Positions 4,366-60,313 of a stretch of DNA of 64,000 nt are shown piece after piece. The translations under genes and the position numbers were made by a program. A model generated the notes under the pieces. That model searched no databases. It saw nothing but the letters and a program-made list of their open reading frames with translations, and was not told the DNA's origin. Source of the stretch: Serpentinimonas maccroryi (GTDB lineage: Bacteria; Pseudomonadota; Gammaproteobacteria; Burkholderiales; Burkholderiaceae_C). The stretch lies in NCBI RefSeq assembly GCF_000828915.1, contig NZ_AP014569.1, positions 682,001-746,000 of the forward strand, given 5' to 3'. Every line of letters starts with the position of its first letter. The stretch's first letter is position 1.

Positions 4366-4426
4366 TTGACTTCCTGCTCCTTCAGCGCGTGAATGGTGGC
4401 GTCATCCACCAACCCGCAGCCCAGCC
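4366..4426 (+). promoter_or_regulatory. Iterated leader cassette, copy 1
   Basis: TTGACT at 4366-4371, an 18-nt spacer ending CAGCGCG, then TGAATG at 4390-4395. The downstream ATG is 32 nt after the second hexamer. The layout matches six other copies in the window, so it is probably a promoter with a shared operator core; the weak -10-like hexamer is the least convincing part. Confidence 0.65.
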
Positions 4427-4630
4427 ATGACCACCCAGCCCACCGCCCTCGACACCTACCTGCAGCGCCTGCCGCTGATCCTCGACAAGATCGAGGCCCT
4501 GCGGCAACTGGCCAACGACCACTTCGGCCACGACCCAGAGGCCATCCACTGGGGCCACGTCGGTGACCTTGGGCGAGTGGAGCAGGCTCTGGATGAGCTG
4601 CTGTCGATCCTCAACGGGCAGCCCAAGTGA
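4427..4630 (+). CDS. Small hypothetical protein behind leader cassette copy 1
   Basis: 67 residues starting MTTQPTALDTYLQRLPLILD, acidic and mostly helical by composition, with no membrane segment or signal peptide. I recognise no family. It is followed directly by the DUF3489 gene and sits on plus among minus-strand element genes, like the cassette genes at 56118-57690. Probably an accessory gene of the mobile element. Confidence 0.75.
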   Translation: MTTQPTALDTYLQRLPLILDKIEALRQLANDHFGHDPEAIHWGHVGDLGRVEQALDELLSILNGQPK

Positions 4631-4641
4631 GGCAGACGACG

Positions 4642-5127
4642 ATGGACACCCTGCCCAAACTCTCCCCGGCTCAAAGCCTGCTGCTGCGCACAGCCGCCCG
4701 CCATCCCGATGGGCGAGTGATCCCGCCTGAAACCCTGCGCGGCGGCGCACTGGCCAAGGTGTTGACCGCACTGCTGCAGCGTGGCTTGATCGAGCTAGCA
4801 GGCGACGGCCACGTGCTGACCGACGCAGGCTATGCAGCCATCGGCCAGCAGCGACCCGTGCCGCCGGATGACTTCCAGATGATGGACACCACCGGCGACC
4901 TCCAACGTCTGGAGGGCATCCCGGTGCGCCCCGGCACCAAACTCGCCGCGCTGGTGTTGGCGCTGCGCCGTCCGCAGGGTGCAAACCACTTGCAACTGCT
5001 GCTGACCACCGGCTGGCAGCCGCACACGGTGCGCGGCGCCATCTCCGGGATGCTGCGCAAGAAGCTCGGCCTGAACGTGGTGCTGGCGCACAACGACAGC
5101 GGCGAGCGCGTGTATCGCGTGGTGTGA
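4642..5127 (+). CDS. DUF3489 family protein (paralogue of 56419-56934)
   Basis: About 161 residues. The C-terminal half holds the DUF3489 signature GWQPHTVRGAISGMLRKKLG, followed by a GERVYRVV end. The N-terminal half resembles a winged-helix fold that asks for renewal of a two-state helix pair (SPAQSLLLRTAARHPDGRV). The same architecture occurs in the gene at 56419-56934. The ATG at 4642 has GAGG about 9 nt upstream; a GTG at 4627 overlapping the previous stop would add five residues. DUF3489 proteins are typical of proteobacterial phages and islands; DNA binding is plausible but not shown. Confidence 0.85.
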   Translation: MDTLPKLSPAQSLLLRTAARHPDGRVIPPETLRGGALAKVLTALLQRGLIELAGDGHVLTDAGYAAIGQQRPVPPDDFQMMDTTGDLQRLEGIPVRPGTKLAALVLALRRPQGANHLQLLLTTGWQPHTVRGAISGMLRKKLGLNVVLAHNDSGERVYRVV

Positions 5128-8832: not shown

Positions 8833-8893
8833 TTGACTTGTGCCCGCCACAGCGCGTTCATGGAGGTCCGCAAACCCCCTCTTGGAGAAAGCA
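8833..8893 (+). promoter_or_regulatory. Iterated leader cassette, copy 2
   Basis: TTGACT at 8833-8838, 18-nt spacer ending CAGCGCG, TTCATG at 8857-8862, with ATG 32 nt further on. It lies in the 381-bp divergent gap between the HTH gene (8512) and the plus-strand recombinase cluster. The rest of that gap (8513-8832) shows no gene. Confidence 0.65.
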
Positions 8894-9142
8894 ATGAGCA
8901 CCCACCAAACCCTGCGCGTGCAGGTCACCGACAGCAACCAGCGCACGCGCGGCGTGATGGCCGTCGAGGCCGATTTTGATCACCTCGGGCCCTACCGCGT
9001 CCAGCACGATGGCCGCACCTACTGGTTCACCGGCAAATCCAGCACCCACCGCGCCAGTGGCGTGACCACCCGCGAAATGGCCAGCGCTGACGCTGCCCGG
9101 CTCTGGATCACGCTGGGCGGCGTCGCGATCTGGGAGGCCTGA
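8894..9142 (+). CDS. Hypothetical protein, first gene of the recombinase cluster
   Basis: 82 residues from ATG 8894 with a GGAGAA site. The sequence reads MSTHQTLRVQVTDSNQRTRG and later RTYWFTGKSSTHRASG, a small beta-rich soluble protein. It is followed at 2 bp by the DUF2924 gene. It is expressed behind leader cassette copy 2, which suggests regulation shared with the other small cassette genes. No function is recognised. Confidence 0.75.
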   Translation: MSTHQTLRVQVTDSNQRTRGVMAVEADFDHLGPYRVQHDGRTYWFTGKSSTHRASGVTTREMASADAARLWITLGGVAIWEA

Positions 9143-9144
9143 GG

Positions 9145-9606
9145 ATGGGCGCAGATCAACCCAACACCATCGTTGCACAACTGGCCAAGTTGCCCTCGAT
9201 GCCAATGGTCGAGCTCTGGGTGCTGTGGGATCAACACTTCCCACGGCGGCCTAGCCATCGCAACCGCAACTACGTGGAGTCGCGCTTGGCCTACCGCATC
9301 CAAGAGCTGGCCTACGGCGCGCTGCCCAGCAACATCCGCAGGATGCTGGTCGAAGCCGGCGCCAAGCACTCCAAGATGAAGTCGCCCGCCGGTCGCAGCG
9401 CGCAAACCTTGCTCATGCCCGGTACCACCCTGATCCGGGAGTGGGATGAACGCGAGCACCGCGTGACCGTCACGCCCGATGGTCTGTATGCCCTGGATGG
9501 TCAGGTGTTCAAAAGCCTGTCGGCGGCGGCGCGCCACATCACCGGCACGCGCTGGAACGGGCCCAAGTTCTTTGGTCTGCGCGACGACAAGGTGAGCGCT
9601 CAATGA
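9145..9606 (+). CDS. DUF2924 domain protein
   Basis: 153 residues. It contains the DUF2924 pattern: an N-terminal LWVLWDQHFPRRPSHRNRNY segment, then LAYRIQELAYGAL, a basic linker and a C-terminal GTTLIREWDEREHRVTV core with SLSAAARHITGTRWNGPKFF, which resembles a small DNA-associated fold. DUF2924 genes usually precede serine recombinases in proteobacterial islands. Here the stop overlaps the recombinase ATG (ATGA), supporting a joint role in integration or its control. Confidence 0.88.
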   Translation: MGADQPNTIVAQLAKLPSMPMVELWVLWDQHFPRRPSHRNRNYVESRLAYRIQELAYGALPSNIRRMLVEAGAKHSKMKSPAGRSAQTLLMPGTTLIREWDEREHRVTVTPDGLYALDGQVFKSLSAAARHITGTRWNGPKFFGLRDDKVSAQ

Positions 9607-17638: not shown

Positions 17639-18715
17639 TGTCGCATCCCCGATAATTGTATAGACTCGAAGCGTTATCCGCTGTTCATCGCTCGCGAGGC
17701 GATGAGGGCGCTGGTATACGATCTGACGCAAGCTCAAGGAGAGTCTACATGATGATAGCCCTGCACAAGAACGCGCGCACCACGCCCGCCATCCGCGCAG
17801 AAATCGCTGCCAGCAGCGCCAGTGCCGCCAGCCTAGCCCAGCGCTTTGGCATCACCCTAGCCACGGTCTACAAGTGGAAAAATCGCAGCAGCGTGCAGGA
17901 CGGTTCGCACACCGCACACCGTCTTCAGACCACCCTCACGCCCGCCCAAGAGCATGTGGTCGTGCAACTGCGGCGCACCCTGTTACTGCCTCTGGACGAC
18001 CTGCTTGCCGTCACGCGCGAATTTCTCTGCCCCAAAGCCAGCCGCTCTGGCATTGACCGCTGCCTGCGCCGCCACGGCGTGGGCAACCTCAATGCCCTCA
18101 AGCCCGCCACGCCCCGTGAGCCCCACAAGCGCTTCAAGAGCTACGAGCCGGGCTACCTGCACGTCGACGTGAAGTACCTGCCGCAAATGGCCGATGAGAC
18201 AAAGTGGCGCTACCTGTTCGTGGCCATCGACCGCGCCACGCGCTGGGTGTACGTGGCGATCAAGAGCAACAAGACCGCAGCCAGTGCCAAGGCTTTCCTT
18301 GGCGCCTTGCACAAAGCCTGTCCGCTCAAGATTCATAAGTTGTTGACTGACAACGGCAAAGAGTTCACGGACAGGCTCTTTGCCTCCCGTGCTAGGCAGC
18401 CCACGGGTCAGCATGAGTTTGATCAGTTGTGCCAAGCCTTGGGCATTGAACACCGCTTGACCAAACCCAGAACGCCCAGAACCAATGGCATGGTCGAGCG
18501 CTTCAACGGCCGCATTGCCGATGTGCTCAAGACGCATCACTTCCACAGTGGGCAGGATCTGGAGCAGACCTTGATGCGCTACGTGACTTTGTACAACCAC
18601 CAACTGCCACAGTCAGCGTTGAAGAGCAAAACGCCGATGCAAGCCATGAAAGAATGGTACGCTTCTCGCCCCGATCTATTCCACAAACGTCCGTATGATC
18701 GTCCGGGATGTGACA
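17639..18715 (+). mobile_element. IS481-family-like insertion sequence, about 1.08 kb
   Basis: Terminal inverted repeats start TGTCGCATCCCCGAT at 17639 and, on minus, TGTCACATCCCGGAC at 18715; they match over about 28 bp with transitions. The element holds one transposase gene. No target-site duplication is visible (left flank ends CATAGG, right flank begins GGCTTG), and the integrase on the right stops exactly at the IS end with its missing part absent on the left. That points to an IS-linked deletion. Confidence 0.8.
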
Positions 18716-21163: not shown

Positions 21164-21217
21164 TTGGCTTCTTCGTCGAACAGCGTTGTCATGGGGTCAT
21201 CTGTTCAGGAGAAAAAG
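21164..21217 (+). promoter_or_regulatory. Iterated leader cassette, copy 3 (diverged)
   Basis: AGCTTGGCTT with TTGGCT at 21164-21169, 18-nt spacer ending CAGCGTT, then GTCATG at 21188-21193; ATG follows after 25 nt. The spacer length and the GAACAGCG core are kept, the second hexamer is diverged. Confidence 0.6.
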
Positions 21218-21772
21218 ATGCACTACCCCGTGATGACCGAAAAGCATTTGGCTGACCGTTGGCAGGTCAGCCTCAAGACGCTGCGACGCTGGCGGCTCGA
21301 TGGCGAAGGGCCTGTGTGGCACAAGCTGTTCCGACAAGTGCGCTACCACGAAGCCGATATCCTCGAATTCGAGCGCCGCAGTGCACAGCACCTGATGGCG
21401 CTGCTCGGGATCAACCGGGAATTCAAACCCGCCGAGCCGGATGCGACCCTGGGCCAAGGTCTCGACGCCGAGGCTGAAAGTCACTACCTCACGGCCAAGG
21501 AAATTGCCGAGGCGGCATCACTGCCGATCCATCTGTTCCGCGATCAGGTTGAACGCAATCGCAAGTGTGTGCCACACCTGATGCTGGTCGGAAACCTGCG
21601 CTTTTCGCTGCAAGCGATTCTGGAATGGGAGATGGCCAACAGTGTGCCTGGCAACGCCGCTGCAGCAGCCGTCGAGGAAGTCGAAAGTCCGGTAGAACCT
21701 TCAGCACCAGCCAAGCGCTGGTACGAAATCGTCAGGGAACAGGAAGGAGAACGGTTCGATTCCGCACCGTAG
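21218..21772 (+). CDS. Protein with two excisionase-like HTH modules
   Basis: 184 residues from ATG 21218 with AGGAG 6-7 nt upstream. The first module is EKHLADRWQVSLKTLRRWRL, then QVRYHEADILEFE. The second is LTAKEIAEAASLPIHLFRDQ, then LMLVGNLRFSLQAILEWE. Both look like HTH_17 folds. It could regulate or excise the unit; nothing in the sequence shows its target. Only cassette-driven gene in the window recognised as DNA-binding. Confidence 0.8.
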   Translation: MHYPVMTEKHLADRWQVSLKTLRRWRLDGEGPVWHKLFRQVRYHEADILEFERRSAQHLMALLGINREFKPAEPDATLGQGLDAEAESHYLTAKEIAEAASLPIHLFRDQVERNRKCVPHLMLVGNLRFSLQAILEWEMANSVPGNAAAAAVEEVESPVEPSAPAKRWYEIVREQEGERFDSAP

Positions 21773-55452: not shown

Positions 55453-55988
55453 CAATCCACCCTTGGGCGCATCTCGCCCAGTTCCTGCAGGTGCTCGCGC
55501 ACCGCCGCCTCCAAGGCGATGTGCAGCGTGTGCGGATCGACGCCAAGCTTGGCCGCCATCTGCGCCGAGATGCGCGCGGGCCAGTTGAGCCACGCATCGC
55601 GTTCGGAGCGCGCCAGCTTAAAAACGTGGGCGATGGCCTGCGGCCGATCTACCAGTTCGCCTTTGAGACGGGCCAGGCGCACCTTGTTGGTTTGCGCCTT
55701 GACCACTTCGTTGACCGTGCGCGCTTGGAGCAAGGACGTGCCGCCTGCTGGCAATGCGGCAGGCCCGTCACCGGTGGTGCCGCTGGACTCCGGCACGGAA
55801 ACCTTGACCGCGCGGGTGGCCGTGCCATTGCGCGGCGCATCGGAATTGCGCGCCCATTCGCGGTCGACGCGCGCGGCATCAATCGTTCCGTCTGCCTCCG
55901 GCGTGATCCGCCCCGCAGCGATGGCCTTGCGCACCGCCGCGTCGGACACCCCGCGGTGGCGTGCGTAGGCACGAATCGAAATACCCAT
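55452..55988 (-). CDS. Terminase small subunit (Nu1-like)
   Basis: 178 residues from ATG 55988 with AGGGGAAAT site. N-terminal HTH (SIRAYARHRGVSDAAVRKAI) recognises cos. The C-terminal half (LARSERDAWLNWPARISAQM, VDPHTLHIALEAAVREHLQE) matches Nu1/DUF1441-like subunits. The stop overlaps the terL ATG. First gene of the late operon. Confidence 0.88.
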   Translation of the reverse strand: MGISIRAYARHRGVSDAAVRKAIAAGRITPEADGTIDAARVDREWARNSDAPRNGTATRAVKVSVPESSGTTGDGPAALPAGGTSLLQARTVNEVVKAQTNKVRLARLKGELVDRPQAIAHVFKLARSERDAWLNWPARISAQMAAKLGVDPHTLHIALEAAVREHLQELGEMRPRVD

Positions 55989-56054
55989 ATTTCCCCTTCG
56001 GGGCACCTGCAATCATTTGTTCGCTCATTGGCCAAATTTGCCAGCGAATTGAGC

Positions 56055-56117
56055 TTGGCTTTCATCGGGAACAGCGCGTTCATACGTTCGTCATCAACAC
56101 CATGAAAGGACACGGAC
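56055..56117 (+). promoter_or_regulatory. Iterated leader cassette, copy 4
   Basis: TTGGCT at 56055-56060, 18-nt spacer ending GAACAGCGCG, TTCATA at 56079-56084, ATG 34 nt on. It is divergent from the terminase genes at 55988. Confidence 0.7.
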
Positions 56118-56324
56118 ATGAGCCAGATCGAAACCATCCTCACCCTAATCGCGCAGAAGCACCTTGGCATCGAGACGCTGGAAACCCGCAGATCCGACAG
56201 CCTCGACTTCCACGACACGGCGGTCTGGCGCCTCAAGGACGCACTGGAAGCCGCCTTCAAGGCAGGCGTCGAACTTGGCGCATCGATGCCGAGTGCGACG
56301 GAGTCGGAAATTGGCAAGGACTGA
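56118..56324 (+). CDS. Small cassette protein, DUF6900-like
   Basis: 68 residues: MSQIETILTLIAQKHLGIET, SLDFHDTAVWRLKDALEAAF, then an acidic end. The DFHDTAVWRLKDALEAA core is that of the small DUF6900 phage family. It is followed by another leader cassette. Function unknown. Confidence 0.8.
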   Translation: MSQIETILTLIAQKHLGIETLETRRSDSLDFHDTAVWRLKDALEAAFKAGVELGASMPSATESEIGKD

Positions 56325-56355
56325 TCGGAAGGCCAGCAAGCCAAGCACAAAGCGC

Positions 56356-56418
56356 TTGGCTTCAGTCCCGAACAGCGCGTTCATCACATCGTCATCAACC
56401 ACCGCAACGGAGCAGATC
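56356..56418 (+). promoter_or_regulatory. Iterated leader cassette, copy 5
   Basis: TTGGCT at 56356-56361, 18-nt spacer ending GAACAGCGCG, TTCATC at 56380-56385, ATG 34 nt on. The text GTCATCAAC after the hexamer is also shared with copy 4. Confidence 0.7.
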
Positions 56419-56934
56419 ATGACCACCACCCAACTGACCCCAGCCCAGCACGCGATCCTGGCCTACGCCCTCGAACACACCAGCGGCAAGATCGACTGGT
56501 TCCCAGACAACATCAAAGGCGGTGCCCGCAAGAAGGTGCTCGACGCGCTCTTCAACCGCGCATTGATCACCCGTGACAGCACCGACTGGTTCGTCGCTGC
56601 CGAGGGTTACGACGCGATGGGGCGCGCCCGGCCTGCGCCTGCGCCCGTGGTCGCCGACCCCGAGATCGAGGCCACCGTCGCGGCCGCAGAGGCCTCGTGG
56701 GCCTTGGCCCGCGCGCAGGCCAAACCCCGCACCCGCGACAACAGCAAGCAGGCCGAAGTGATCCGAATGCTGCAACGCCCGGAGGGCGCAACCATTGGCC
56801 AGATCTGCCTGGCCACCGGCTGGCAGCCGCACACGGTACGCGGCACCTTCGCCGGGGCCTTCAAGAAAAAACTTGGCCTGACCATCGTCTCGGACAAGCC
56901 GCAGGGTGGCGAGCGGGTCTACCGCAGCGCCTAA
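56419..56934 (+). CDS. DUF3489 family protein (paralogue of 4642-5127)
   Basis: 171 residues from ATG 56419. MTTTQLTPAQHAILAYALEH opens a winged-helix-like N-domain; an Ala-rich linker (VADPEIEATVAAAEASWALA) leads to the DUF3489 core GWQPHTVRGTFAGAFKKKLG and a GERVYRSA end. The C-terminal half is nearly identical in pattern to the protein at 4642-5127, and both stand behind the same leader type. A DNA-binding role is inferred only. Confidence 0.87.
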   Translation: MTTTQLTPAQHAILAYALEHTSGKIDWFPDNIKGGARKKVLDALFNRALITRDSTDWFVAAEGYDAMGRARPAPAPVVADPEIEATVAAAEASWALARAQAKPRTRDNSKQAEVIRMLQRPEGATIGQICLATGWQPHTVRGTFAGAFKKKLGLTIVSDKPQGGERVYRSA

Positions 56935-56963
56935 AAAATGTTGCGAGAGAGGCCGGAAATAGC

Positions 56964-57025
56964 TTGGCTTCTTTCGCCACCAGCGCGTTCATACAGGCGT
57001 CGCAACGATCACACTGGAAAACGCC
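56964..57025 (+). promoter_or_regulatory. Iterated leader cassette, copy 6
   Basis: TTGGCT at 56964-56969, 18-nt spacer ending CAGCGCG, TTCATA at 56988-56993, ATG 33 nt on. GTCGCAACGATCA downstream is shared with copy 7. Confidence 0.7.
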
Positions 57026-57226
57026 ATGAACACCCCGCAGTCCACCACCGAAATCAACTACGACAAGTTCATCGCCGAACTGACTGAGCTCACCCGCAAG
57101 TACGGGGTTGCCATTCAGTCGGTTGGCGGCGTGATCCTGGCCGACACGCAGGGCGAATTCAGCAAGGTCAGTTACCGGGCCGACATCAGCAGCGGCGACC
57201 TCTACCCGGAGTTTCCGGAGGACTGA
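57026..57226 (+). CDS. Small cassette protein of unknown function
   Basis: 66 residues: MNTPQSTTEINYDKFIAELT, ELTRKYGVAIQSVGGVILAD, then an acidic C-terminus (GDLYPEFPED). Soluble; no family recognised. Third of four consecutive cassette genes. Confidence 0.78.
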   Translation: MNTPQSTTEINYDKFIAELTELTRKYGVAIQSVGGVILADTQGEFSKVSYRADISSGDLYPEFPED

Positions 57227-57258
57227 GCAGAAAGATCGAGCAGGAGGCCAAGCGGCGC

Positions 57259-57321
57259 TTGGCTTCCTGCTTGAACAGCGCGTTACTACAGGTGTCGCAA
57301 CGATCAACCCAGGAGCCCGAG
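57259..57321 (+). promoter_or_regulatory. Iterated leader cassette, copy 7
   Basis: TTGGCT at 57259-57264, 18-nt spacer ending GAACAGCGCG, TTACTA at 57283-57288 (closest to a consensus -10), ATG 34 nt on. Confidence 0.7.
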
Positions 57322-57690
57322 ATGAACACCAACCAACCGATCCCCGCCACCCAGAACGATGCCTGGGGGTTTTGGGGCACGATGAACGAACACGCCAGCA
57401 CCGCCTGGACCCTGGCAATGACCACCGTCTCCGACGCCACCGGCCAGACCCTCGAATCGGTACGGATCTTCCTCGACAGCCGCCACGGACGCCACTTTGC
57501 CGACGATGTGCAGAACGGGCTGTGCCAGGGCCAGACCCTTGCGGACGCGATCAACTCCGCCACCCAGCAGTGGCTGGGCTGGAAGATCGGACGCCAGACC
57601 AGCAAGGACTACGGCATCCCGCGCGGCCTGCCTTACCTGACTGGCTTTGTGATTCACTGCGAAGTCACCGACGAAGCACTCTCCACCTGA
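57322..57690 (+). CDS. Small cassette protein of unknown function
   Basis: 122 residues from ATG 57322 with AGGAG 8 nt upstream: MNTNQPIPATQNDAWGFWGT, TAWTLAMTTVSDATGQTLES, LADAINSATQQWLGWKIGRQ. Helical, acidic; may be an antirestriction-type decoy by composition but no motif proves it. The 3' end overlaps the convergent methyltransferase by 37 bp. Confidence 0.8.
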   Translation: MNTNQPIPATQNDAWGFWGTMNEHASTAWTLAMTTVSDATGQTLESVRIFLDSRHGRHFADDVQNGLCQGQTLADAINSATQQWLGWKIGRQTSKDYGIPRGLPYLTGFVIHCEVTDEALST

Positions 57691-58919
57691 TCATCGAACA
57701 CCACCCCATCCGACTCGCGGGTGGCCTGCTGGCCGGTCCAGTCCTGCCAGCGGCGCACGATCACGTCCACATACTTCGGATCGAGTTCGATCAGCCGCGC
57801 CACACGTCCGGATTTCTCGGCTGCGATCAGCGTCGTGCCGGAACCACCAAACGGGTCGAGTACCACGTTGCCGGGGCGGCTCGAATTGCGGATCGCCCGC
57901 TCGACCAACTCCACCGGCTTCATCGTCGGGTGCAGATCGTTCTTCTGCTGCCTCTTGATGTTCCACACGTCGCCCTGATCGCGGTCACCGCACCATTGGC
58001 GCGTCGCGCCCTCGCGCCATCCGTAGAGGATCGGCTCGTACTGGCGCTGGTAGTCGGAGCGGCCCAGCGTGAAAGTGTTCTTGGCCCAGATCACGAAGGT
58101 CGACCACTTGCCACCGGCGGCGCGAAAGGCTGCCTGCAGCACATCGAGTTCACTGGACGACATCGCCACATAGATGCCACCCTGGCAATGCGCGACAGTC
58201 GGCGTCAGCGCTGCCAGCAGGAAGTCGTAGAAGCCATCGCCCAAGTTGTCATTGAGGATCGCCCGATCTTTACCGCGCATCTTGTCCTTGGCGCTGTTGG
58301 CGTAGTTCACGTTGTACGGCGGGTCGGTGAAGACCATATCCGCCACGTCGCCTTGCATCAGCCGGGCATAGCTCTCGGCCACGGTCGAGTCGCCGCATAA
58401 CAGCCGGTGCTGGCCCATGATCCAGACATCGCCCGGGCGCGAGATCGGAATCTCGCCAACCTCTGGCACCGCATCCTCATCGGTCTGGCCTTCGTTGTCC
58501 GGCTCCTCGCCCGCGATCAGTTCGGCCAGCGCGTCGGCGTCAAAGCCGGTGATGTCCAGATCGAAACCTTCCAGCTGCAAGGACTCCAGCTCGATGCGCA
58601 ACATCGCCTCATCCCAGCCAGCGTTCTCCGCGATGCGGTTGTCTGCGATGACCAAGGCGCGGCGCTGGGTCGGGCTCAGGTGATCGAGTACGACCACTGG
58701 CACGATCTCCAGCCCGAGTTTCTGCGCGGCGGCCAAGCGTCCATGCCCGGCGACGATGATGCCGTCACTGCCTGCGAGGATCGGATTGGTGAAGCCAAAC
58801 TCGGCAATCGATGCGGCGATCTGCGCCACCTGAGCATCGCTATGTGTTCTGGCATTTCTTGCGTATGGCAGCAGCTTGGCCGTGGCCCACTGTTCGATCT
58901 TGTCGGCCAGCCAATTCAT
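57654..58919 (-). CDS. ParB-like domain fused to DNA methyltransferase, DPPY type
   Basis: 421 residues. N-terminal ParB/Srx domain: LLPYARNARTHSDAQVAQIA and GSDGIIVAGHGRLAAAQKLG (about 52-69). Methyltransferase: TDPPY at 198-202, a target region, then LDPFGGSGTTLIAAEKSGRV. DPPY suggests adenine-N6 (or cytosine-N4) modification. The start overlaps the stop of a paralogue (58916-60313). Such fusions are frequent in phages and may protect phage DNA from host restriction. Confidence 0.9.
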   Translation of the reverse strand: MNWLADKIEQWATAKLLPYARNARTHSDAQVAQIAASIAEFGFTNPILAGSDGIIVAGHGRLAAAQKLGLEIVPVVVLDHLSPTQRRALVIADNRIAENAGWDEAMLRIELESLQLEGFDLDITGFDADALAELIAGEEPDNEGQTDEDAVPEVGEIPISRPGDVWIMGQHRLLCGDSTVAESYARLMQGDVADMVFTDPPYNVNYANSAKDKMRGKDRAILNDNLGDGFYDFLLAALTPTVAHCQGGIYVAMSSSELDVLQAAFRAAGGKWSTFVIWAKNTFTLGRSDYQRQYEPILYGWREGATRQWCGDRDQGDVWNIKRQQKNDLHPTMKPVELVERAIRNSSRPGNVVLDPFGGSGTTLIAAEKSGRVARLIELDPKYVDVIVRRWQDWTGQQATRESDGVVFDDQVESASSVTSQ

Positions 58920-60313
58920 GTCACCCCCTCTGTTTCACGCTCGGCGGCGACCTCGTCCAAGGACTGACCGGTGGCAAGCAAGGTGACCGGCACATCCGGA
59001 TGGTTCTGCTGAAAACGTTTGATGGCGACGTCGACATACTCCGGCGCGATCTCCACGCCGCGGCAGATGCGACCGGTGCGCTGCGCGGCCAACATCGTAG
59101 TACCACTACCGCCGAAGGGCTCGAACACGATGTCACTGGCATCGGTGTAGGCCTCGATGACGAACCCCGGCAGCGCGACCGGGAACACGGCCGGGTGGTC
59201 GATGTCCTGACCGATCTTGCCCTTGTGCCGCATCACCCGGATCACCGAGTCGGGAATCCGCTTGTCCTGCGTGGGCTGGCCTGCGTGCGTCCAGCCGCCA
59301 ACCTCGCCATCCTTGCCGCGCATCGCTGTCGACGAGCCATCGGCGCGCAGATGCGAATCCTGTCCCGCGTGCTTGCAGGGCACGATCTTGTTGGGCTTGC
59401 GGCTCTGCCGATTGAAGTGGAAAACGAACTCGAAGCTCGGCGCGAAGCGACCGGCCCAGTCCCCCGGCATCCCCGGCCCCTGATCCCAGACGTACCACGC
59501 GAAGCGCCGCCAACCCTGCGTGCGCATCCAGCCAAGCCAGGCATCCCAATACGGGATGACTTCGTTGTCGCGGTGGATCAATCCGAGGTTGACCAGCACC
59601 TGTCCGTCGTCGGCCATCGGCACGTTGCCGAACACGCCGCGCATCAGGCCATCCCAATCCTTGACACCGCCGCTGGTGTAGTCGCGCTGGTTGCCATAGG
59701 GCGGCGAGGTGAAGCACAAGCGCGCCGAGTCGCCTTGCATCAGCGTGGCGATCACGGTTGGGTCGGTGGCGTCGCCGCAGATCAGCCGGTGCTGACCCAA
59801 GGTCCACACATCGCCAGAGCGAGACACCGGGATTATCGGGGTGTCGGGTACGTCGTCGGCAGCATCGGGCTCGTCGGCGTCCTGCTCCTGGTCACCATCA
59901 CTATCACCGAGGTCGTCGGCCAGCAAGGCTTCGATCTCGGCATCCTCGAAACCAGTAAGTGCGAGGTCGAACCCTGCTTCTGACAACTCGGCCAGTTCCA
60001 GCGCCAGCATCGCGTCGTCCCATCCGGCATCCAGCGCGAGGCGGTTGTCGGAGATCACGTAGGCACGCCTTTGCGTCGGCGACAGATGCGCCAGTTCAAT
60101 CACCGGCACCTCGGTCAGGCCCAACTTGCGCGCGGCAGCGAGCCGACCGTGGCCAGCAATGATGCCGTTGTCGCCATCCACCAGTACCGGATTTGTCCAA
60201 CCGTACTCGACGATGCTGGCGGCGATCTTGGCCACCTGCTCGTCGTTGTGCGTTCTCGGATTCCGTGCGTAGGGGATCAGCGCCTCGACCTTGCGGTACT
60301 CGACGTTGAGCAT
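58916..60313 (-). CDS. ParB-like domain fused to DNA methyltransferase, SPPY type
   Basis: 465 residues from ATG 60313; a 125-codon upstream extension of the frame lacks coding character and is rejected. ParB part: ALIPYARNPRTHNDEQVAKI and NGIIAGHGRLAAARKLG (49-65). An acidic linker (SDGDQEQDADEPDAADD, 138-154) precedes the methyltransferase with TSPPY at 202-206 and FEPFGGSGTTMLAAQRTGRI. The SPPY motif is commoner in N4-cytosine enzymes, so the two paralogues may modify different bases. Confidence 0.9.
   Translation of the reverse strand: MLNVEYRKVEALIPYARNPRTHNDEQVAKIAASIVEYGWTNPVLVDGDNGIIAGHGRLAAARKLGLTEVPVIELAHLSPTQRRAYVISDNRLALDAGWDDAMLALELAELSEAGFDLALTGFEDAEIEALLADDLGDSDGDQEQDADEPDAADDVPDTPIIPVSRSGDVWTLGQHRLICGDATDPTVIATLMQGDSARLCFTSPPYGNQRDYTSGGVKDWDGLMRGVFGNVPMADDGQVLVNLGLIHRDNEVIPYWDAWLGWMRTQGWRRFAWYVWDQGPGMPGDWAGRFAPSFEFVFHFNRQSRKPNKIVPCKHAGQDSHLRADGSSTAMRGKDGEVGGWTHAGQPTQDKRIPDSVIRVMRHKGKIGQDIDHPAVFPVALPGFVIEAYTDASDIVFEPFGGSGTTMLAAQRTGRICRGVEIAPEYVDVAIKRFQQNHPDVPVTLLATGQSLDEVAAERETEGVT

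What the first reader, a model, noticed from the sequence alone, without database searches (positions are those of the whole stretch)
56055..57321. Four small genes each behind its own near-identical leader
Four consecutive plus-strand genes (68, 171, 66 and 122 aa) are each preceded by TTGGCT, exactly 18 nt ending in AGCGCG, a TTCATA/TTCATC/TTACTA hexamer, then 33-34 nt to the ATG. The genes are not homologous, so the leader rather than the gene is repeated. They lie in a prophage otherwise on minus. The pattern suggests a cassette system in which small (perhaps anti-host) genes are shuffled behind one regulated promoter.
Basis: partly seen in the sequence, partly recalled or inferred. Interest (0 to 1): 0.75.

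Follow-up and report, generated by a model that had tools for sequence, protein, structure and literature searches.

The report
Repeated start signal for phage genes
Many bacterial prophages and related mobile elements use one short, rigidly conserved DNA signal in front of unrelated small genes, often with a fold-back hairpin when another gene lies just before it, which looks like a movable switch-on module that lets such genes be swapped in ready to be expressed.

Summary
The four leaders are present (GCTTGGCTTC-N7-AACAGCGCGTTCAT, small deviations; ATG 62-63 nt after the first T) and the genes are unrelated. Three more copies lie in the window, one 8.6 kb beyond it. Gene-based retrieval finds it before 70/73 DUF6900, 94/107 DUF3489 and 83/83 phrog_8020 genes. 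Of the 13 DUF3489 exceptions, 12 follow another gene closely; for 6 a leader lies at the front of that run, for 6 a sister leader. So the leader marks starts of transcription units, most likely as a promoter, although it does not match sigma-70. Over half of the array-internal leaders form a strong hairpin with the sequence before them, and its arms co-vary; leaders that open an array mostly lack it. Leader and downstream gene go together. This resembles promoter/stem-loop cassettes (PeSLs) of T4-like phages and the ESAS promoters of cluster K mycobacteriophages, with different sequence and hosts. 'Regulated' and 'anti-host' are not shown; no transcript data exist here, and the factor that reads the signal is unknown.

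The parts
56053..56083 (+). leader core 1, GCTTGGCTTTCATCGGGAACAGCGCGTTCAT, before gene 1; first of the array, divergent from the terminase small subunit; no hairpin beyond shuffles
   Evidence: fold z-score 0.26
56118..56324 (+). gene 1, 68 aa, DUF6900 (PF21841)
56338..56362 (+). hairpin before gene 2 (arms 56338-56346 and 56354-56362, loop 7); the 3' arm is the leader's GCTTGGCTT
   Evidence: z -0.58, not significant alone; class-level support
56354..56384 (+). leader core 2, before gene 2
56419..56934 (+). gene 2, 171 aa, DUF3489 (PF11994); predicted two winged-helix domains
56943..56977 (+). hairpin before gene 3 (14-bp stem, loop 7)
   Evidence: z -2.56
56962..56992 (+). leader core 3, before gene 3
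57026..57226 (+). gene 3, 66 aa; no Pfam match up to E 0.1, best PHROG E 0.071
57236..57274 (+). hairpin before gene 4 (18-bp stem, loop 3), overlaps leader 4
   Evidence: z -3.71
57257..57287 (+). leader core 4 (TTACT variant, the majority form before this family), before gene 4
57322..57690 (+). gene 4, 122 aa, phrog_8020; predicted all-helical, no PDB match at E 0.001
4366..4394 (+). further leader (TTGACT...CAGCGCGTGAAT) at the front of a tight two-gene run: 67-aa gene 4427-4630, then DUF3489 (ORF 4627-5127) without its own leader
8833..8861 (+). further leader before an 82-aa gene (8894-9142), followed by DUF2924 (9145-9600)
21164..21192 (+). degenerate leader (CAGCGTTGTCAT) before a helix-turn-helix gene (21218-21772)

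Best explanation
The leader is a transcription start signal (promoter) of a large family of prophages and other recombinase-bearing elements, mostly of beta- and gammaproteobacteria and Acidithiobacillus. TTG of TTGGCT would be the -35, GCGTTCAT would hold the -10 after a fixed 17-nt spacer, and transcription would start 6-8 nt later, giving a 5' leader of about 28 nt with a ribosome site. Each small gene, or each small operon, starts with one copy. Where a co-directional gene lies just upstream, the copy often pairs with the sequence before it into a hairpin whose 3' arm is the -35 and spacer; it probably ends, processes or insulates the upstream transcript. Leader and ORF travel together, so an incoming gene brings its own start signal, and the hairpin's 5' arm is fitted to it at the junction. 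Shown: conservation, rigid spacing, position, one per transcription unit, co-varying hairpin downstream of a neighbour, leader spacer and 5' part following the downstream gene. Inferred: promoter activity, start point, role of the hairpin. Unknown: the protein that reads it; the lack of a sigma-70 match, and of near-matches above chance elsewhere in the host genome, suggests a factor tied to the elements.
For: Gene-based retrieval: leader before 70/73, 94/107 and 83/83 unique upstream regions, gap between the halves 7 nt in 70/70, 94/94 and 81/83. Start codon 57-70 nt after TTGGCT in 390 of 431 unique sites. Of the 13 leaderless DUF3489 genes, 12 follow another gene within 47 nt; upstream of 6 a leader scores 18-24 of 24 bases, upstream of 6 lies a sister leader with TTG, GCGTTCAT (one base off in two) and, exactly in three, GTCATCAAC at the same positions. 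The sister leader occurs once in each of 9 viral contigs; 7 of the 9 show two or more short genes in a tight run behind it. After 567 leader-borne genes: 264 next leader only, 132 tight second gene only, 14 both, 157 neither; in 13 of the 14 the 'second gene' is a peptide read through the leader. Gene 1 is divergent from the terminase, with 105 nt between the start codons (129 if the terminase starts at its first ATG). Hairpin: duplex below -15 kcal in 113/201 array-internal, 8/95 first-of-array and 29/130 single leaders; exchange of the spacers weakens it for internal ones only (0/200 permutations); within DUF3489 and DUF6900 internal differs from first or single (p 1.7e-6 and 2.5e-5). Unit: spacer and TTCAT-to-ATG similarity 0.77 and 0.79 when only the downstream gene is shared, 0.49 and 0.60 when only the upstream gene is, 0.39 and 0.55 when neither is.
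Against: No 5'-end or expression data. The sites fail a sigma-70 consensus scan (0 found; shuffles 0.3) and the putative -10 (GTTCAT) is poor. The hairpins lack a T-tract. Gene 2's hairpin alone is not significant and gene 1 has none; 88 of 201 internal leaders have no strong hairpin. The hairpin's 5' arm follows the downstream gene no better than the upstream one (last 25 nt before the leader: 0.58 and 0.61, neither shared 0.44). Family f7 (n = 6 and 5) goes the other way on the hairpin test, not significantly. No protein of the window's prophage was found in all nine other leader-bearing elements. 13 of 18 leader-bearing genomes have DUF3489, so DUF3489 is not a required reader. L446 has no clear upstream leader and L430's sister leader is no better than its control. 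157 of 567 leader-borne genes are followed by neither a leader nor a tight gene.
Confidence: 0.72

Rival explanations
1. The leader is a recombination site of a cassette system (integron-like): small genes are inserted by a recombinase that recognises it.
For: Tandem arrays of unrelated small genes with a repeated, rigidly conserved element between them; a hairpin in many array-internal copies but rarely in the first one, as in attC against attI; the same leader stands before DUF2924 genes, which are followed by recombinases where checked.
Against: The element precedes single genes and whole operons (135 singles, some cut by locus ends). It sits at a near-fixed distance from the next start codon. 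Its spacer and 5' part follow the downstream gene, whereas attC goes with the upstream gene. The core reads GTTCATA, GTTCATC or GTTACTA, not GTTRRRY (the attC rule is recalled).
Confidence: 0.08
2. It is an RNA element (cis-regulator or translation signal) in the 5' leader of each mRNA.
For: Each copy lies just before a start codon; many can form a hairpin.
Against: The spacing between the conserved halves hardly varies, unusual for an RNA. The hairpin is mostly absent from first-of-array copies of the same families. No Rfam match. Genes of the same families inside operons have only a ribosome site.
Confidence: 0.1
3. It is the operator of an element-encoded repressor or another regulatory protein site, and the real promoters lie elsewhere or are ordinary.
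For: Strong conservation inside what would be the promoter spacer (CAGCGCG) is more than RNA polymerase needs; DUF3489 is predicted to be a two-winged-helix protein.
Against: Only 105-129 nt lie between the divergent start codons before gene 1. No sigma-70 consensus site was found in the block. The sister leader keeps TTG, GCGTTCAT and partly the start region, which are promoter positions. This overlaps with the best explanation, since operator and promoter may coincide.
Confidence: 0.08
4. The conserved stretch is coding sequence on the opposite strand (peptide MNAL..EAK) or another artefact of relatedness.
For: The opposite strand reads MNALxxxEAK in many copies, and the fixed spacing would suit codons.
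Against: 60 of 431 sites (26 of 248 distinct peptides) have an in-frame stop, about what chance gives for three free codons, and the TTACT form common before phrog_8020 removes the ATG. The downstream genes form many unrelated clusters.
Confidence: 0.02

Closest known systems
PeSLs (promoter-early/stem-loop mobile regulatory cassettes) of T4-like phages
   Same: Composite promoter + stem-loop motif, dense where genes are shuffled and said to mediate the shuffling. Basis: titles of Arbiol 2010 and Comeau 2014 in reference lists and one passage of PMC4503421; the two papers were not held. That they separate small unrelated genes is recalled.
   Different: T4-like myoviruses with host-type early promoters (passage and recall) against prophages and recombinase-bearing elements here. 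Here the hairpin's 3' arm is the leader itself, the hairpin is mostly missing when no co-directional gene precedes, no T-tract, no sigma-70 match.
SAS/ESAS of cluster K mycobacteriophages
   Same: Repeated motif before many genes of different families, with an imperfect inverted repeat; the 2024 Adephagia paper reads ESAS as putative promoters with -35/-10 17-18 bp apart, and shows a stem-loop between genes 90 and 91 (passages of PMC3203893, and PMC11373665).
   Different: Different sequence and hosts; SAS lies a few bases from the start codon; described from cluster K, with a single imperfect copy in Corndog. Here the signal crosses many elements and is shared with the recombinase operon.
Morons (prophage genes with own promoter and terminator)
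   Same: Autonomous small transcription units inserted among phage operons; criteria as in a passage of PMC5567305.
   Different: Arrays of several units with one and the same start signal; no intrinsic terminator found.
Integron gene cassettes
   Same: Arrays of unrelated small genes with a repeated element that can form a hairpin (features of integrons recalled).
   Different: Element belongs to the downstream gene, behaves like a start signal, lacks the attC core.

Membership tests
PeSL cassettes of T4-like phages | stem-loop and promoter motif combined between genes | tested here: inconclusive
   array-internal leaders: hairpin co-varies and overlaps the leader, strong in 113 of 201; promoter function itself inferred
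PeSL cassettes of T4-like phages | associated with shuffling of genes | tested here: met
   51 kinds among 95 arrays, with changed orders and contents (fragments included); leader follows the downstream gene
PeSL cassettes of T4-like phages | host-type early promoter and terminator | tested here: not met
   no sigma-70-consensus promoter and no T-tract terminator on this strand
PeSL cassettes of T4-like phages | T4-like myovirus | tested here: not met
   prophage with lambda-type terminase small subunit; relative AcaML1 is titled temperate (title of Tapia 2012)
ESAS promoters of cluster K mycobacteriophages | -35/-10 17-18 nt apart plus inverted repeat | tested here: inconclusive
   spacing fits (17-18 nt) and a hairpin is present in many internal copies, but no sigma-70-type -10
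ESAS promoters of cluster K mycobacteriophages | SAS 13-mer GGGATAGGAGCCC next to the start codon | tested here: not met
   not in the sequence before the four genes (motif)
Integron cassette (attC) | recombination element inherited with the upstream gene | tested here: not met
   spacer and 5' part of the element follow the downstream gene (0.77/0.79 against 0.49/0.60); the hairpin arm follows neither more than the other
Integron cassette (attC) | GTTRRRY core | tested here: not met
   core is GTTCATA/GTTCATC/GTTACTA (rule recalled)
Moron | own promoter and intrinsic terminator | tested here: inconclusive
   promoter-like start signal; terminator scan negative on this strand
Rfam cis-regulatory RNA | match to a curated family | tested here: not met
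   0 matches at gathering score in the window and 0 up to E 5 in 55900-57800
sigma-70 promoter | TTGACA-N16..18-TATAAT | tested here: not met
   0 sites in 55950-57750
Promoter in general | transcription starts at the site | not testable with these tools
   needs 5'-end mapping or a reporter

The most novel reading that the evidence does not exclude
A previously undescribed promoter class, read with the help of an element-linked factor (not plain sigma-70), serves as a common 'plug' across hundreds of prophages and other recombinase-bearing elements of several proteobacterial groups. It controls both the DUF2924-recombinase module and arrays of swappable accessory genes, and inside arrays it doubles as one arm of a hairpin that insulates each unit from its neighbour. 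Any gene that lands behind it becomes part of the element's regulon.
Probability: 0.35. Interest if true: 0.78.

Novelty: new variant of a known kind. Interest (0 to 1): 0.64.

Why it matters
If right, one 31-bp motif finds the accessory genes of a large, little-studied prophage group and says where their transcripts start. It gives a second, sequence-unrelated case of promoter + stem-loop units in gene exchange among phages, in temperate elements and across bacterial classes. It also names a regulon (integration module plus accessory genes) whose reader can be looked for.

Tried and rejected
First own-genome pattern had the spacer wrong by one (it did not find the four leaders); repeated correctly. 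Rfam: nothing. Plasmids: one 101-nt leader region gave no match. Cultured phages: a 79-nt leader query matched only the three AcaML1 records. DUF3489 as the required reader: rejected as a general rule, 13 of 18 leader-bearing genomes have it. A protein common to all leader-bearing elements: none found at E 1e-6 among ORFs of 60 codons or more; DUF2924 + recombinase is in all but G619 among the 10 compared, a helix-turn-helix protein of the window's prophage in 7 of the other 9; the G599 and G467 stretches were short. Reverse-strand coding: rejected. attC-like site: disfavoured. Hairpin arm as part of the moving unit: a first look suggested it, a fairer comparison does not bear it out. Tandem duplication of genes: rejected, products fall into separate clusters (50 clusters, several of them chance ORFs or fragments; the number of real families is not settled). 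Structure of gene 4: confident helical model, no PDB match. Rows dropped: five of 23 order-level genomes (G499, G532, G536, G627, G655) whose only hits end TTGAT, and two of five phylum-level genomes (G171, G252), judged chance or coding by sequence alone; own-genome loci L001-L008 and L131-L138 left out of the pooled counts; tblastn rows without the protein's start, without a near ATG or with under 110 nt upstream, and duplicates, were left out (494 rows gave 263 unique regions).

Literature: ten answered searches (AcaML1, DUF3489, start associated sequence, DUF2924, repeated intergenic promoters, TTGGCTTC, AGCGCGTTCAT, ESAS, mobile regulatory cassettes, PeSL); in what I looked at of their listings I saw no description of this motif. 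One search held 236 papers, of which 10 were listed. Only open-licence PMC papers are held, so this is weak evidence of absence. Passages seen: PMC3203893, PMC5567305, PMC3826726, PMC4503421, PMC11373665. Reference-list lines only: PMC4177764, PMC5931544, PMC5348500. Listings only for the rest.

Full report
WHAT IS THERE. Each reads GCTTGGCTTN, a variable stretch, then CAGCGCGTTCAT (TTACT in the fourth); the following hexamer ends 32-33 nt before the ATG. The genes are DUF6900, DUF3489, an orphan, and phrog_8020. They form a plus-strand island between a divergent terminase small-subunit gene and convergent DNA methylases. The same layout (plus-strand small genes between terminase and methylases) is annotated in Acidithiobacillus phage AcaML1. 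The 40 kb of AcaML1 examined hold four leaders, one of them before a gene that clusters with DUF2924.

The window holds three more copies: at 4366 before a tight run (67-aa gene, then DUF3489), at 8833 before an 82-aa gene followed by DUF2924, and a degenerate one at 21164 before a helix-turn-helix gene. A further exact copy, 8.6 kb right of the window, lies before a DUF2924 gene. The other near-matches of the genome (2 mismatches, or 1 at C1:364830) are scattered; the backward control gave 1 and 1, against 13 and 3 for the pattern.

HOW COMMON. Among the 80 of 119 records shown, hosts are mostly Burkholderiales, Rhodocyclaceae, Accumulibacter, Lysobacterales and other gammaproteobacteria, with Nitrospira defluvii; a few others (Paenibacillus, a Coriobacteriia and an archaeal MAG) look like chance. 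Collection-wide controls: spacer 10, 2 stretches; spacer 12, 1; the pattern reversed, 0. In 398 genomes of the phylum 5 match, 3 after dropping two. In 300 genomes of the order 23 match, 18 after dropping five with TTGAT endings. Of these 18, 13 have DUF3489, 16 have DUF2924, and 17 have one or the other.

UNBIASED TEST. Because exact-pattern retrieval fixes the motif, I retrieved loci by gene (DUF3489 and phrog_8020 proteins in IMG/VR, the best 80 kept of 598 and of 488; DUF3489 profile in 300 genomes, 30 loci), and scored the 110 nt before each gene against both motif halves with a free gap. DUF6900 genes were scored where they lay in these same loci. Unique upstream regions with at least 18 of 24 bases: DUF6900 70/73, DUF3489 94/107, phrog_8020 83/83; the reversed control never exceeded 16. 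The gap was 7 nt in 70/70, 94/94 and 81/83 (the other two 8 and 11). So conservation and rigid spacing are not search artefacts. The IMG/VR loci were the closest relatives, so this is not a sample of all diversity, and the 13 leaderless DUF3489 genes all come from the genome sample.

ONE PER TRANSCRIPTION UNIT. Of the 13 DUF3489 genes without a leader, 12 follow another gene within 47 nt, with little but a ribosome site between. Upstream of 6 a leader scores 18-24 of 24 (L436, L444, L445, L442, L422, L437). Upstream of 6 others lies a sister leader, (A)ACTTGATT...ATGAAGCGTTCAT, whose TTG and GCGTTCAT (GCATTCAT in L441, GCCTTCAT in L430) fall at the same positions, with GTCATCAAC exactly in three (L449, L432, L420) and nearly in two (L441, L435); in L430 it scores no better than the control. 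L446 is unclear. Two of the three leaderless DUF6900 genes (L449, L420) stand behind the same sister leaders; the third, in L430, has none. The sister leader occurs in 9 viral contigs, once each; in 7 of the 9 two or more short genes follow in a tight run. After 567 leader-borne genes, 264 are followed by another leader only, 132 by a tight second gene only, 157 by neither and 14 by both; in 13 of the 14 the 'second gene' is a reading frame that runs through the leader. A leader-bearing gene needs about 60 nt of room, so part of this exclusion is geometric.

DISTANCE AND PRODUCTS. In 431 unique sites found by a weight matrix (468 hits above 20 bits, none in the reversed control), 390 have a start codon 57-70 nt after TTGGCT. 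Products fall into 50 BLAST clusters, led by DUF2924 (78), DUF3489 (73), phrog_8020 (61) and DUF6900 (58); several clusters are chance ORFs or fragments. There are 95 arrays of two or more and 135 singles; some singles are cut by locus ends. Content and order vary, e.g. DUF6900-DUF3489-phrog_8020, with f4, f5, f10, f13, f21, f23, f24 or the window's orphan between the last two, and DUF3489-DUF6900 in two cases.

HAIRPIN. Duplex strength between the leader's 3' arm and the upstream 35 nt averages -16.0 kcal in 201 array-internal leaders, -9.1 in 95 first-of-array and -12.1 in 130 singles. Exchanging spacers among sites weakens it for internal leaders only: energy -17.86 against -16.65, sd 0.17, 0 of 200 permutations as strong, n = 116; no effect for first (n = 58) or single (n = 78) ones. 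Within families, internal exceeds first or single for DUF3489 (54 against 17, p 1.7e-6), DUF6900 (11 against 39, p 2.5e-5) and f4 (18 against 6, p 0.007); f7 goes the other way (6 against 5, p 0.18); phrog_8020 and DUF2924 had too few of one class. There is no T-tract. I read the hairpin as punctuation for the upstream transcript that shares bases with the next start signal; this is inference.

UNIT OF EXCHANGE. Among 301 adjacent leader units I compared pairs that share only the downstream gene (1377), only the upstream gene (1493), neither (15145) or both (2509), up to 1200 pairs each (pairs not independent). The leader's 7-nt spacer is 0.77, 0.49, 0.39 and 0.85 alike, the stretch from TTCAT to ATG 0.79, 0.60, 0.55 and 0.84. 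So leader and downstream gene go together. The first 12 nt after the upstream stop are near background unless both genes are shared (0.33, 0.35, 0.31, 0.76). The 25 nt before the leader, which hold the hairpin's 5' arm, do not tell: 0.58, 0.61, 0.44, 0.85. The arm is thus fitted to the leader at each junction rather than carried by either gene. One search, a cruder look, had suggested that it moves with the downstream gene.

MECHANISM. TTG, a fixed 17-nt spacer, GCGTTCAT, a partly conserved start region and a ribosome site are the layout of a promoter, and the one-per-unit rule fits. Yet no sigma-70 consensus is found, and CAGCGCG within the spacer is more conserved than polymerase alone needs. 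I therefore think a promoter with an element-linked factor is likeliest. DUF3489 is predicted to be two winged helices (pLDDT 84, pTM 0.42; Foldseek hits to PadR, ArsR and MarR among others, best E 0.015, none below 0.001), but 5 of 18 leader-bearing genomes lack it. Nine of ten elements compared share DUF2924 + recombinase, missing in G619.

KNOWN KINDS. PeSLs of T4-like phages and ESAS of cluster K mycobacteriophages are the closest in working. Neither is the same in host or phage type, and defining features fail (membership table). I call it a new variant of a known kind.

Noticed in passing
window 8894-9600: 82-aa orphan gene followed by DUF2924 with a RAMA-domain match below its cut-off (E 1e-5); the DUF2924-recombinase pair recurs in 9 of the 10 leader-bearing elements compared.
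   Followed up: partly
L481-L489: Sister leader TTGATT-N10-ATGAAGCGTTCAT, once per contig, before small genes, often in tight runs; ATGAA-GCG-TTCAT is an interrupted palindrome.
   Followed up: partly
L009 18190-20070: AcaML1: Gp30's annotated start (19314) lies upstream of the leader, so its true start is probably the ATG about 63 nt after TTGGCT; the leader near 18195 lies opposite the annotated 5' part of Gp33 and precedes an unannotated ORF.
   Followed up: no
window 57322-57690: Gene 4 (phrog_8020) has a weak match (E 0.001, 52 residues) to PADLOC candidate defence family PDC-M17A.
   Followed up: no
L010 2932-3135 (OR683401.1 37873-38076): Pseudomonas phage Bise has a gene with a 94-nt stretch 75% like gene 1 (DUF6900), near its end, after a DNA adenine methylase and a reverse transcriptase family gene.
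   Followed up: no
window 57654-60238: Two adjacent DNA methylases with ParB-like N-termini (matches below cut-off) on minus; two adjacent methylases are annotated in AcaML1 too.
   Followed up: no
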